A DNA stretch of 64,000 bases from Plumapathes pennacea (lineage: Eukaryota > Cnidaria > Anthozoa > Antipatharia > Myriopathidae), in assembly GCA_964036295.1 (NCBI GenBank), contig OZ038472.1, positions 12,996,885 to 13,060,884 of the forward strand, given 5' to 3'. The position numbers and the translations under genes were made by a program. The number at the start of each line of letters is the position of its first letter. The stretch's first letter is position 1. The notes under the pieces were generated by a model that was not told where the DNA came from, did not search any database, and saw only the letters and a program-made list of their open reading frames with translations. Positions 35,718 through 60,602 of the stretch are shown here, piece after piece.

Positions 35718-38700
35718 TCATGCTGTGGAATCTTCACTGGTTTCCATGTGCATATCTTTAATAATGCTAATTGCGCTGCGCATCAGGTTCTTCAACTGCG
35801 CAATTTCCCGTCCAATAGCTTGGTACCGAATCTTATTCACAGCTGGTGACATTTGAGATCCTTGCAGTTGAGGGAGTGAAGGTACGGTACCGTCGAGATA
35901 CAGCTCCTACGAGAAGTGTGTGTAGCACGTTAAAAAGAGTTTGGAAACACATGACAAAGACATATATAGGAATGACGCATGGGGTTTTAGTAACACTGAG
36001 CTCAGATAAAACCAAAGAACCCAACAGAAATTCTGAGGTCAAAATGAACATGAAAAAGAGCGGAATCACAATTCAGACAAACTATCAAGGCAAAGGGAAA
36101 CGTGATATAGACACATGAAAAAGCCACAAGAACAGGTGCAGGCAATAAGAACTATCACTACAAAGCACAGACAAACATAGAAGCGGACAAAGGCAAAAGT
36201 ATTAGATACCCATAAACTTTTCCCGAAAGTATAAAGAGATCATAGTATAGTCATCGACATCATTATCGTCGTTATCATCATTATCACTACCACCATCTTC
36301 ATCATCACCATTGTCATCATCATCAGCAGCAGCAGCATTATCAGCAGCAGCAGCAGCATCACAATCATCATCATCATCATCATCCTCATTATCATCATCA
36401 TCATCATCATCATCTTCATCATCATCATCATCATCTTCATCATCATCATCATCATCATCATCATCATCATCATCATCATCTTCATCATCATCATCATCAT
36501 CATCATCATCATCATCATCATCATCATCATCATCATCATCATCATCATCATCATCATCATCATCATCATCATCATCATCATCATCATCATCATCATCATA
36601 TCATCATTATCATCATCATCATCATCATCATCATCATCATCATCATCATCATCATCATCATCATCATCATCATCATCATCATCATCATCATCATCATCAT
36701 CATCATCATCATCATCATCATCATCATAAACACAACCTGATTGTGTCTTATTGTACTTACGGTCATTTCCATAGTAGCAACCAAGCCTGCATACATGACA
36801 GTATTGATCTGGACACACTGGACCACTTGGCCTCCATAAATGGTGACATTGGGATGGAGTTGAGGAAACAAGAGAGCTTGATTTTTTAAGTCACGCATGT
36901 CGTAACCAAGCCTCTGAAATTCCTGCAGGGTACGAAAGCACATTTAGCACTTAATTTATCCGGTAAACCTGGACCTGATTGTTGAAAGCTCTAGTATGCT
37001 AATCCTGAACTATGCCTAAACGTTTATGGAACTTTTCGATCTGAAAACAAAAAAAAATGTTTTGCTCATAACTTGAGTTTTTAGTCAGTTAGCCGGTATT
37101 TCTTTTTTAGCTAGAACAAAACTTTTTAGTTACGCTTTGATCGATATACTCAATTTGCACTATGTTTTGCATGAGGTCGAGAGATTGAATTTGGTTGGTT
37201 CCGAGTTACCTTAATTGACTTAAACTTTTAAGTCGCAAGTCGCAGTCGCAAGGCAACACGTGCAAATACACCAAAAGCAAAAACTGTGGATTAACACAAA
37301 ACTTCTCCTTTAATTATTTTCCTCTTACTTAGTTCTCTGTCACTTTCGCTTTGTGTCGTCACACTTTTTGATTCTGTCACTCTGTCAATTTGTCTGTTTC
37401 TGTTATGTTAGGTGGTGATATAATTAAGTGTGTGTGTGTGTCCTCTCTCTGTCTCTCTCGTTTTGACTGTTGACTTACTGTCACGCCCGATGAAGGATCC
37501 TTCACAAATGTCGTTGTCCTGTTGAAATCGACATTTTTCTGAAAAACAAACGTACAAACATTTATACCTTTCATACTGATAACACTAAGTACTTGATTAT
37601 GACGAGACTCACAGCAACTAAAGAAGGCCCAATCATGTGACAAGACAAGACTCATGGTCAAAACTTAGCAGTACGGACAGAAATTTATCTAGCGTAAATA
37701 GTTTTAAGAAAAACATACGTAAGAGGGATCTTTCTAGTCTCATAAAGAACAACTGAAGCTGTTGTGCACTTTGTAATGCATAATATGCTAGCACCAAGGT
37801 CTATTCAGATCATTCTACATCTGACCAGTTTAGTTAGAATTAGTTTAGTTTGTAAAAAGCTAAATACATTGACACTTAAATAAAGTTATTATTATTATTA
37901 TTATTATTATTATTATTATTATTATTATTATTATTATTATTATTATCATCATCATTGGTTGTTGCAAAGGACTATCCGCAAGGTAAGCGACACAATGAAT
38001 TGCTAGAGGGAGAATTATGTATTAATTGAAAGTGGGGTAGGAGGAGGGCGCGCGCGCGGGGGGGGGGGGGGGGGGGTGGGCTAATGTACATACAAATTCC
38101 ATCCATGTCCTGGTAAGATGAGTCGTCAGGTTCTTGCACCAAGCGTCGAGTTCTTGGATAGGAGCAGCTGCAGTAACTCCCCCCTGATCCGACACCGTTG
38201 TCACGATAAAGACCGCGATTAGTGCGAACAATGCTGACGGTCGTTGAATGTGCAGTCCTTTGAAACAAAGTCAAATGCATGTGAGACTGTTAGGACTGCC
38301 AAATGAAACAGCAATGTTTGCTATTGTGGAAAAGAGCAGAGTTTTACACAAGTGTCCAAAATGGCCGCCTCAGATTTTAGTAGAGGGCGGTCAATTTCCT
38401 ACCAATGTGGTGTACTTGTTCGTAGTCACTGTTATGTCAAAAGTAAAACCTTAAAACCATTGATATACGTTGTTGTCATGGTGTCATGGTAATCTATCAC
38501 GTAACCCCCCCCCCCCCCCCCCCCCCCTTTTAGTGGTTGTTTTAGAGGCTCGAGAGTACATATAATCGCTTTCTGTTTCTTTGTTTCCGGTGTGATTACT
38601 GAGATGATTACTGATTACTTAGATGACCTTAGTTTTTCAAGGGTACAATATTTCTAGGATTTGTAGTTTGATACCCCCTTATGTTTCTTAACTTCAGAAA

Positions 38701-39577
38701 ATGTATGACTTCTCATACTTGCAGTGATAATCTGTATCCTTTGTAGGAAAGAAATTGAGTTTTCAGTGAAATCTTAACCCTCGGACGTACAATGCACCGT
38801 ATAACACTGGGCCCGGTCGTTCAAAGCCCGACGAAGCTAATCCAGAATTAACCAAATTCTTTCCCTCAACCTCTTGGTTAAAGAAGTAAAAGGTCAGACC
38901 AGCTAAAAGGCTTGTTTTTTAAACTTAAATGAACTTGTCAAGGAAGCCGAGGTCTGGCGAAACATTTCCATTCAGGCATAAAGGCAATAAAACGTTTGGA
39001 GTTAATCCAGGATTAGCCTAATGGTGCTTCGAACAACCGGGCCTAGTACATTATCACGGCAAAGCACAGAACAGCGCATTAAAGTACTGCGAACACAGTA
39101 TGCGTTTCACACATTACGCCACAGCAGGACAGGGCGCATAGAATTAAAGAGCATTCAATGGTAAGAGACCAGGAGACGTATTCACCTGTACGAAAGGAAA
39201 TGTTCGTGGTAAATTGAATTTAAGCACGCTATCCATCCGGCGTGCATTGGCTACTGGCTTTTCTCTAGTGACTCATTTGCGGCACAGTAGAAACACACAG
39301 TGAAACTAAATGCCAATGTAAAAAAGTAAGGTTGATATGAATATGTCTTTGTAGCCGTAAAGATTGGAGCAGTAACAATCGACTCAGAACAGTACAGAAC
39401 GTTTCGCTGGAACGCTGCTGTAGTGAAGCCGGAACACATTCAAAAACAGCATGCAGTGAAACAGCATATAACATAACAGTATAGCACTGACATGATGCAG
39501 TTGCGAACCGAGACACGGAATAACTCCAAAAAATCTTCTACAAAAAGCGCCGAGGGAAGATTGCACTTACTTGACAT
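35718..39577 (-). CDS. Gene 3: five-exon secreted helical protein, class I cytokine-like (185 aa)
   Basis: Coding exons (minus): 39,571-39,577; 38,094-38,233; 37,479-37,538; 36,761-36,922; 35,718-35,906, stop TGA. Donors are GTAAGT, GTATGT, GTAAGT, GTAAGT; all acceptors end AG. Intron phases are 1-0-0-0. Exon 1 encodes only MS plus one base. Exon 2 gives a signal peptide (TLFALIAVFIVTTVS) and a first helix ending THLTRTWMEF; exon 3 a 20-residue loop with an N-glycosylation site (NRT); exon 4 two helical segments around RDLKNQALLFPQL and VMYAGLVATMEM; exon 5 a final helix (RYQAIGREIAQLKNLMRSAI). The size and exon plan match genes 1 and 2 and vertebrate long-chain class I cytokines. Sequence similarity to the other two is minimal (exon 2 ends in MEF versus IEF in gene 1). 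The last acceptor (CTTCTCGTAG) and the exon 2 acceptor have weak pyrimidine tracts. Receptor, presumably a gp130/CRLF-type protein, is inferred. Confidence 0.72.
36355..36727. repeat. (ATC)n / (GAT)n microsatellite in intron 4 of gene 3
   Basis: Almost pure TCA/ATC triplets extend over about 370 bp, starting about 35 bp past the exon 4 donor. Long serine, histidine, aspartate or methionine frames here are artefacts of the triplet repeat. Confidence 0.97.
37886..37946. repeat. (TTA)n microsatellite
   Basis: About 20 perfect TTA units lie in intron 2 of gene 3, running into ATC triplets. Confidence 0.95.
38809..39043. mobile_element. MITE, GGGCCCGG family, copy 2, in intron 1 of gene 3
   Basis: Ends GGGCCCGGTCGTTCAAAG and CTTCGAACAACCGGGCC are inverted repeats, with inner AATCCAGGATTAGCCTAAT as in the copy at 7.1 kb. 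Confidence 0.8.
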
Positions 39578-59800: not shown

Positions 59801-60602
59801 TCAAACTGTGAAACTAATAGTCGCCTTATTTTATGATACAGAGAGATAGAATTTTCAAGACTGGCGCTCGCCATCTCGCTTGGTTCAGCGGGGTTTTAAA
59901 GACCCTCATAACGAAAGAAAAAGACGTCCAGAAATTCAGAACTCCCCTTACAGAGATATTTAGGAAAACTCGTCAACTAACGGATGCAATGCGAGCGAAA
60001 GTAAGTATCATATACATCAAAGAGACTCTCTCAGCCAATTCAATGTTGGTGTTTAAATCTAGAAAATCGTAAAAACATCCAAGGCTGAATTTGGTTTCTA
60101 AATGCAATAAATCGATGACAAAATAGGTAAATATAATTTTTGTGAGATGTTTAGAAAGTATCAGTTATTTGGTAGGGTGTGTGTGGGTGTTACAGGGTGT
60201 GACTCTGTAGTTACGTATGTATATGTTGAGTTTTGGGTATATTATTATGTGGTACGGTGTGCATGAAATGTGGATACCTTTTTATTGAGCAGATATCTGT
60301 TTAATTATGAAGCCACGTTGGTTCAGAGTACAATAGAGGATAATGAGCAATCTTTTGTTAAAGTTCCTCCAACTAGGAAGTGAAAAGCGTTATCTTATGT
60401 CTTTTTTGTTTGTTTTTCATTACAGCCACGGTCCCGTGGGAAGAGAGTGTCAAAAAGGTCTACGCTACCGTACAAATTCGAGGCGTCGTGGGATGGAAAA
60501 TCAAAAGAGGAGAAACTCTTTTGGACTGCAAAGCTCTTACAAGAGATGACTGAATACTTGAGATGGATCAACATATTATTCAACTACACCTCAAAAAACT
60601 AA
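56841..60602 (+). CDS. Gene 2: five-exon secreted helical protein, class I cytokine-like (198 aa)
   Basis: Coding exons: 56,841-56,856; 59,178-59,338; 59,585-59,668; 59,842-60,000; 60,426-60,602, stop TAA. Donors are GTACGT, GTAAGT, GTAAGA, GTAAGT; acceptors CTTCGCAG, TTTTCAG, TGATACAG, CATTACAG. Phases are 1-0-0-0. Exon 1 encodes MLVKS plus one base; exon 2 completes a signal peptide (PCATIVLAVSLIYITDAA) and carries helix A around FFNKQLKSLCSSLLKLV; exon 3 is a 28-residue loop with NET; exon 4 holds helices around HLAWFSGVLKTLI and TEIFRKTRQLTDAM; exon 5 has a basic loop (RSRGKRVSKR) and helix D around WTAKLLQEMTEYLRWINIL, ending NYTS. Two possible glycosylation sites (NET, NYT). The basic loop could be cut by a furin-type protease, an unusual feature. 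Exon 3 has the same length as in gene 1. Poly(A) signal near 61,028. Confidence 0.78.
57000..59177. other. Intron 1 of gene 2
   Basis: A 2.3-kb intron begins at 56,857. It holds AT-rich sequence and unexplained short frames (57,568-57,792; 58,332-58,526, plus), with a TTTTTTTCTTTT tract leading into the exon 2 acceptor. No nested gene was recognised. Confidence 0.5.

What the first reader, a model, noticed from the sequence alone, without database searches (positions are those of the whole stretch)
35718..60602. Cluster of three cnidarian class I cytokine-like genes with 1-0-0-0 intron phases
Genes 1, 2 and 3 each have five coding exons, a first exon of 7-16 nt ending in phase 1 and three phase 0 introns, a signal peptide, total length 185-203 aa, and matching exon sizes (exon 3: 84, 84, 60 nt; exon 4: 168, 159, 162 nt; exon 5: 162, 177, 189 nt). 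Helix-prone segments fall where helices A, B+C and D fall in long-chain class I cytokines (growth hormone, IL-6, G-CSF), whose genes have the same exon plan and phases. Class I receptors of the CRLF3/gp130 type and JAK/STAT parts are known in non-vertebrates, whereas their ligands in cnidarians are, to my knowledge, not established. The three share little sequence, so search by similarity alone would miss them.
Basis: partly seen in the sequence, partly recalled or inferred. Interest (0 to 1): 0.95.

Follow-up and report, generated by a model that had tools for sequence, protein, structure and literature searches.

The report
Coral-type cytokine-like gene trio
Three neighbouring genes in a coral- or anemone-type genome look, from their exon plan and helix layout, like distant relatives of vertebrate signalling proteins such as IL-6 and erythropoietin, and the same genome carries a matching receptor-like gene, but the protein fold could not be tested here.

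Summary
Three five-exon genes lie at the stated places, with GT-AG introns in phases 1-0-0-0 and the stated exon sizes. In a scan of 264 kb, with limits tuned to include the three, genes 3 and 2 score 42.3 and 40.7. The best of 60 shuffled copies reaches 32.3. Gene 1 is weaker: its splice score is within chance, though 3 of its 4 tested exons look coding. The mitochondrial contig indicates a hexacoral.

The class I reading rests on exon plan, helix and loop placement, and one new fact: the same genome has a CRLF3 exon and a gp130-like receptor gene (D3-D4 best solved match gp130, E 1.6e-10). Most likely the three are secreted class I-type cytokines acting through such a receptor (0.6). JAK was not shown. 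One paper says four-helix bundles predate cnidarians, but no cnidarian class I ligand gene was named in what I saw.

The parts
35718..39577 (-). Gene 1 (g1): five coding exons 39571-39577, 38094-38257, 37479-37538, 36761-36922, 35718-35906; 193 aa
   Evidence: exons 2, 4 and 5 coding-like, exon 3 not; splice score within chance
44481..50909 (+). Gene 2 (g2): five coding exons 44481-44493, 45846-46030, 46772-46855, 50164-50331, 50748-50909; 203 aa
   Evidence: second-best chain of the scan, above all 60 shuffles; exons 3, 4 and 5 coding-like, exon 2 borderline
56841..60602 (+). Gene 3 (g3): five coding exons 56841-56856, 59178-59338, 59585-59668, 59842-60000, 60426-60602; 198 aa
   Evidence: best chain of the scan, above all 60 shuffles; codon score weak
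38094..38257 (-). g1 exon 2: hydrophobic signal-like stretch and putative helix A
36761..36922 (-). g1 exon 4: putative helices B and C (C not amphipathic)
35718..35906 (-). g1 exon 5: putative CD loop and helix D
45846..46030 (+). g2 exon 2: signal-like stretch, Q-run, putative helix A; 3' border uncertain (alternative end after 149 nt)
46772..46855 (+). g2 exon 3: proline-rich putative AB loop; alternative start 6 nt downstream
50164..50331 (+). g2 exon 4: putative helices B and C; the only exon whose like-with-like comparison with g3 stands out
50748..50909 (+). g2 exon 5: proline-rich putative CD loop and helix D
59178..59338 (+). g3 exon 2: signal-like stretch and putative helix A
59842..60000 (+). 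g3 exon 4: one helix-prone stretch, divided by me into putative helices B and C
60426..60602 (+). g3 exon 5: basic putative CD loop with a furin-like R-G-K-R site, then putative helix D
   Evidence: the furin motif is recalled and was read by eye
39682..39689 (-). TATA-like box TATAAATG, 112 nt upstream of the g1 start codon
   Evidence: one search printed -105 from a point 8 nt above the start codon; recounted from the sequence; chance not tested
44396..44403 (+). TATA-like box TATAAAAA, 85 nt upstream of the g2 start codon
   Evidence: two more TATA-like matches further up; chance not tested
56783..56790 (+). TATA-like box TATAAGGC, 58 nt upstream of the g3 start codon
   Evidence: chance not tested
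60603..61060 (+). stretch downstream of g3 with seven ATTTA pentamers (2.1 expected, p 0.006) and a poly(A) signal

Best explanation
The three genes encode small secreted ligands of the class I helical cytokine kind. Each has a very short first exon, then an exon with the signal peptide and helix A, an AB-loop exon, one exon for helices B and C, and a last exon for the CD loop and helix D. After secretion the four helices would pack into an up-up-down-down bundle. The bundle would cross-link receptors of the gp130-like type, whose gene lies elsewhere in the same genome, and so switch on STAT-dependent transcription. Shown: the gene models of g2 and g3 as sequence, the shared plan, the clustering, and the receptor exons and CRLF3 exon. 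Inferred: expression, secretion, the fold, the binding, JAK or another kinase, STAT, and the biological role (probably stress, immune or growth signalling).
Against: No cytokine match in Pfam or the PDB for any of the three proteins. No fold prediction was possible. Only 2 of the 12 putative helices are amphipathic at p<0.05 singly, and g1 C and g2 A not at all. g1 shows no significant similarity to g2 or g3 in any like-with-like exon pair, its splice score is within chance, and no poly(A) signal was found in the 699 nt after it. An unlike exon pair (g2 exon 4, g3 exon 2) scores as well as the like pair. There is no shared disulfide pattern (cysteines outside the signal-like part: 2, 1 and 1). 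g3 has a possible furin site between helices C and D. The four-cysteine part of the receptor did not match cytokine receptors by sequence. JAK and STAT were not identified. Vertebrate exon sizes are recalled, not retrieved.
Confidence: 0.6

Rival explanations
1. Taxon-restricted secreted helical proteins that share an ancestral exon plan with each other but are not related to class I cytokines.
For: No sequence match to any family; weak similarity among the three. Short first exons ending in phase 1 and strings of phase 0 introns also occur outside class I cytokines (for example IFNL2/3).
Against: The exon sizes, phases and helix/loop placement agree together with the long-chain cytokine plan (recalled), and a gp130-like receptor gene is present.
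Confidence: 0.25
2. Class II type (IL-10/interferon-lambda-like) helical cytokines rather than class I.
For: IFNL2 and IFNL3 have a short first exon ending in phase 1 followed by phase 0 introns (PMC2654155, passages).
Against: Those genes have five further exons, these have four. The receptor found is of the gp130 kind; class II receptors were not searched for.
Confidence: 0.06
3. Secreted prohormones whose active part is a cleaved peptide, at least for g3.
For: A furin-like R-G-K-R in g3 exon 5 (read; motif recalled).
Against: g1 and g2 show no such site by eye; helix-prone stretches spread over exons 2, 4 and 5 suggest a folded domain.
Confidence: 0.04
4. One or more gene models are wrong or are pseudogenes, g1 most likely.
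For: g1 splice score in the chance range; one weak donor (-2.0 bits); exon 3 of g1 not coding-like; no poly(A) signal in 699 nt.
Against: Open frames through all exons; g1 exons 2, 4 and 5 coding-like, p 0.019 to 0.002; same plan next to two stronger genes.
Confidence: 0.05

Closest known systems
Vertebrate long-chain class I helical cytokines (EPO, IL-6, growth hormone)
   Same: Five coding exons, phases 1-0-0-0, a tiny first exon, signal plus helix A in exon 2, helices B and C in exon 4, helix D in exon 5, about 190-217 aa (vertebrate values recalled, for example EPO 13/146/87/180/156 nt).
   Different: No detectable sequence similarity, no shared disulfides, fold untested, cnidarian host.
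Amphioxus GH-like protein (GHl)
   Same: A divergent type I helical cytokine of 208 aa in a non-vertebrate, with a receptor-like partner (PMC9010856, passages).
   Different: Chordate, cloned and tested; no sequence or exon comparison with it was made here.
Drosophila Unpaired ligands with Domeless
   Same: Secreted ligands of a gp130-like receptor in an invertebrate (PMC8226699, passages).
   Different: No exon plan or sequence comparison was made here.
IFN-lambda 2/3 (class II)
   Same: Short first exon ending in phase 1, then phase 0 introns (PMC2654155, passages).
   Different: One more exon; class II receptors (recalled).
gp130 (IL6ST) and CRLF3 receptors
   Same: The host genome has a CRLF3 exon (E 2.1e-8) and an Ig / four-cysteine / FnIII / FnIII / membrane-span gene whose D3-D4 match gp130 best (E 1.6e-10).
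   Different: The WSXWS of the gp130-like gene is degenerate (WGELVG); no box 1 was recognised in the pieces read; exon borders were set mostly by eye.

Membership tests
class I helical cytokine | Up-up-down-down four-helix bundle | not testable with these tools
   structure prediction switched off; only helix placement by simple scales
class I helical cytokine | Four helix-prone segments separated by a long AB and a long CD loop | tested here: inconclusive
class I helical cytokine | Signal-peptide-like hydrophobic stretch near the N-terminus | tested here: met
   hydropathy filter and segments, all three; no signal-peptide predictor was run and secretion is not shown
class I helical cytokine | Long-chain gene plan: five coding exons, phases 1-0-0-0, short exon 1 | tested here: met
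   the vertebrate plan itself is recalled
class I helical cytokine | Sequence similarity to a known cytokine family | tested here: not met
   Pfam at E 10: 0 cytokine families for 3 of 3 proteins; PDB: none. Similarity is often absent between cytokine families (recalled), so this weakens but does not exclude membership
class I helical cytokine | Binds a receptor with a cytokine-receptor homology domain | not testable with these tools
   candidate receptors are present in the genome, binding untested
class II cytokine (IL-10/IFN-lambda) | Five exons with all introns in phase 0, or six with an extra short first exon | tested here: not met
   five exons with phases 1-0-0-0 against PMC2654155 (passages)

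The most novel reading that the evidence does not exclude
These are class I cytokine ligands of a cnidarian, sharing descent and gene plan with the IL-6/GH/EPO superfamily. Together with the gp130-like receptor of the same genome they show that the whole ligand-receptor module predates the split of cnidarians and bilaterians, rather than arising in Bilateria or chordates.
Probability: 0.5. Interest if true: 0.9.

Novelty: new member of a known kind. Interest (0 to 1): 0.75.

Why it matters
A 2021 survey found no IL-6 superfamily member in invertebrates by its method (PMC8226699, passages), a 2022 review calls the origin of type I helical cytokines undetermined (PMC9010856, passages), and the natural ligand of CRLF3 is unknown (PMC6797617, passages). 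[quoted passage not shown] If these genes are what they seem, they give candidate ligands and a candidate receptor in one cnidarian genome. The age of cytokine signalling would then become directly testable by binding and knock-down, and it would be shown that gene plan can find cytokines that sequence search cannot.

Tried and rejected
Sequence routes that led nowhere: Pfam; PDB by sequence; searches of the own genome with each of the three proteins, which returned the genes themselves, one chance-level place for g2 (E 1.28) and seven weak places on contig 4 for g3 (E 0.11 to 2.7, all at the same part of g3, not followed); an exon 4 profile (g2 and g3) and a g1 search in the six-frame translation of 264 kb, no further member (best other E 0.33 and 6.1).

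Family searches in the own genome for Hormone_1, GFP, IL6Ra-bind, STAT_bind and FERM_F2 gave no match over the cut-off. The STAT_bind hit (E 0.0145) did not look like STAT when read by eye. These searches do not show absence, because exons are short. The EpoR_lig-bind search did not complete. JAK: of 33 places from the JH2 query I read three, and of 117 from the JH1 query one more; by eye they are Eph-like, SYK/ZAP-like and growth-factor-receptor-like kinases. The best-scoring places of both searches were not read, so JAK is open.

The first, strict version of the exon-plan scan found no chain, the three genes included; the limits were then relaxed. The third-best chain of the second scan, 94 kb to the right, was rejected because it overlaps exons of another gene that I recognise as ANAPC5 (recalled). 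Alternative phase plans in the same scan reached 38.7, 36.1, 30.9 and 30.0; these chains were not examined.

Literature: 10 answered searches of the held library and passages of 11 papers. None of the listings or passages names a class I cytokine ligand gene in a cnidarian. PMC5182411 is not held. Most subscription papers and all preprints are outside the library.
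Full report
What was checked first. The window lies at G000:C11:12996885-13060884 of a 290 Mb genome in 24 contigs. I rebuilt the three genes from the sequence. All open through five exons with GT-AG introns in phases 1-0-0-0: g1 (- strand) 7/164/60/162/189 nt, 193 aa; g2 (+) 13/185/84/168/162 nt, 203 aa; g3 (+) 16/161/84/159/177 nt, 198 aa.

Is it more than chance? I wrote a small gene finder for the plan (ATG exon up to 25 nt with a phase 1 donor, hydrophobic 120-210 nt exon, then 54-126, 141-186 and a terminal 141-216 nt exon, phase 0 joins) and ran it over the window plus 100 kb on each side (264 kb, 5 kb of it N), both strands. 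A first, stricter version found no chain. After looking at the splice scores of the three genes I set limits that admit them, so this ranks the genes against the rest and is not a blind discovery. It found 7 chains; g3 is first (42.3) and g2 second (40.7); g1 is seventh (21.8, with another last exon). In 60 second-order Markov shuffles, scanned with the same limits, the best chain is 32.3; 51 of the 60 have some chain. The third real chain (32.4) lies in a gene I recognise as ANAPC5, and other phase plans on the real sequence reach 38.7, so real coding DNA can produce chains well above the shuffles. For g2 the scan chose slightly different borders (exon 2 of 149 nt, exon 3 of 78 nt); those borders need RNA data. 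A codon score trained on 12 long frames of the flanks (6542 codons; one frame of each main kind was scanned and matched P450, TPR-CHAT, ABC transporter, TRP channel and LRAT models) was compared with 3000 open non-coding segments of 159 nt. It puts g1 exons 2, 4 and 5 (p 0.019, 0.015, 0.002) and g2 exons 3, 4 and 5 (p 0.007, under 0.001, 0.007) in the coding range. g2 exon 2 is borderline (0.083), g1 exon 3 is not (0.34), and g3 is weak (0.22, 0.027, 0.14, 0.15). Each gene has a TATA-like box 58-112 nt before the start codon; its chance level was not tested. The stretch after g3 has seven ATTTA pentamers (2.1 expected, p 0.006); those after g2 (2, p 0.31) and g1 (0) do not stand out, and after g1 no poly(A) signal was found in 699 nt.

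Host. Cox1 is split on a 17,711-base contig. The contig gives two tRNAs only, tRNA-Met and one with anticodon tca, which the program labels SeC and which I read as mitochondrial Trp. The cox1 intron holds a frame that looks like a LAGLIDADG endonuclease by eye. By recalled knowledge this is the hexacoral pattern. A GFP family search found nothing, which does not show absence.

Receptors in the same genome. I read three of the 66. One, on contig 4, is an exon with WSSWS whose best PDB match is CRLF3 (E 2.1e-8), followed by gp130 and LIFR (E 0.0017 and 0.0023). One, on contig 1, matched gp130 at E 0.004 with 64 residues. Reading around it showed in order, on one strand, an Ig-like exon (best PDB matches Ig proteins, E 4.5e-5), an exon with a four-cysteine pattern like the first cytokine-receptor domain (by eye; no PDB match), two half-exons of D3 ending in WGELVG in place of WSXWS, two half-exons of D4, and a membrane span. 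Exon borders were set mostly by eye, and that all belong to one gene is inferred from order and strand. D3 plus D4 together match gp130 best (E 1.6e-10); the best proteins other than gp130 score 1.2e-7 and 4.3e-7. The third place, on contig 5, was an ordinary FnIII repeat by eye. The query selected for gp130-likeness, so the margin over other FnIII proteins is the evidence, not the hit itself. JAK was not identified: 4 of the places returned by two kinase queries were read and none is JAK by eye, while the best-scoring ones were not read. STAT was not found with the Pfam model. Both results are inconclusive.

Interpretation. Recalled exon sizes of EPO (13/146/87/180/156), GH (10/161/120/165/198) and IL-6 (19/191/114/147/168), all with phases 1-0-0-0, match these genes closely. 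The recalled sizes add up to the recalled protein lengths, but they come from no call. The nearest documented alternative is IFN-lambda 2/3, with a short phase 1 first exon and phase 0 introns after it, but with one more exon (PMC2654155, passages). The most economical reading is a local cluster of secreted class I-type ligands, two of them well supported as gene models. Homology with vertebrate cytokines is likely but not proven, since the plan could have arisen separately and the fold is untested.

What is known, from passages only. A survey could not locate IL-6 superfamily members in invertebrates and dates gp130 to molluscs (PMC8226699); sea squirt has a gp130-like and a CLF-3-like receptor (PMC1963337). 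Amphioxus has a GH-like type I cytokine and several related genes, and the origin of the superfamily is called undetermined (PMC9010856). CRLF3 is reported from cnidarians with unknown ligand (PMC6797617). The same paper says, citing others, that the four-helix bundle, STAT and SOCS were present in ancestors of cnidarians and that JAK and the cytokine receptor might have been added in Bilateria. SOCS genes are reported from Nematostella as data not shown (PMC3296744). A 2026 review names IL-17-type cytokines in cnidarians and says JAK/STAT pathways have homologues there (PMC13337447). So a four-helix ligand in a cnidarian would not be wholly unexpected, but the ten library searches listed in Tried and rejected found no named class I ligand gene in a cnidarian, and a gp130-like gene in a hexacoral is at odds with a bilaterian origin of the receptor.

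Noticed in passing
G000:C1 about 5205560-5211860 (loci L046, L048-L051), - strand: gp130-like class I cytokine receptor gene: Ig exon, four-cysteine exon, D3 with degenerate WSXWS (WGELVG), D4, membrane span; gp130 is the best solved match for D3-D4 (E 1.6e-10). Borders mostly by eye.
   Followed up: partly
G000:C4:14559221-14559337 (locus L045), - strand: CRLF3 exon with an intact WSSWS; best PDB match CRLF3, E 2.1e-8.
   Followed up: partly
window 62880-63730, - strand: Two exons of a gamma-glutamyl cyclotransferase (GGACT, AIG2-like) gene, joined by eye; E 1.5e-4, exactly at the Pfam cut-off.
   Followed up: partly
window 36240-36727: A long ATC/TCA trinucleotide repeat array inside the last intron of g1; seen by eye.
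   Followed up: no
window 61760-62040 and 62130-62350: Two nearly palindromic (inverted repeat) elements of 200-280 bases, of MITE type by appearance; seen by eye.
   Followed up: no
L007, L012, L014, L022, L024: Neighbouring frames, one of each kind scanned: TPR-CHAT, cytochrome P450 (several similar frames), LRAT domain, ABC transporter and TRP channel.
   Followed up: partly
g3 exon 5, window 60426-60480: Basic stretch with a furin-like R-G-K-R between the putative helices C and D; possible processing site (by eye).
   Followed up: no
G000:C4 about 22.93-26.06 Mb (loci L035-L041): Seven places with weak similarity to the same part of g3, residues 107-175 (E 0.11 to 2.7); probably a repeated or mobile gene, not examined.
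   Followed up: no
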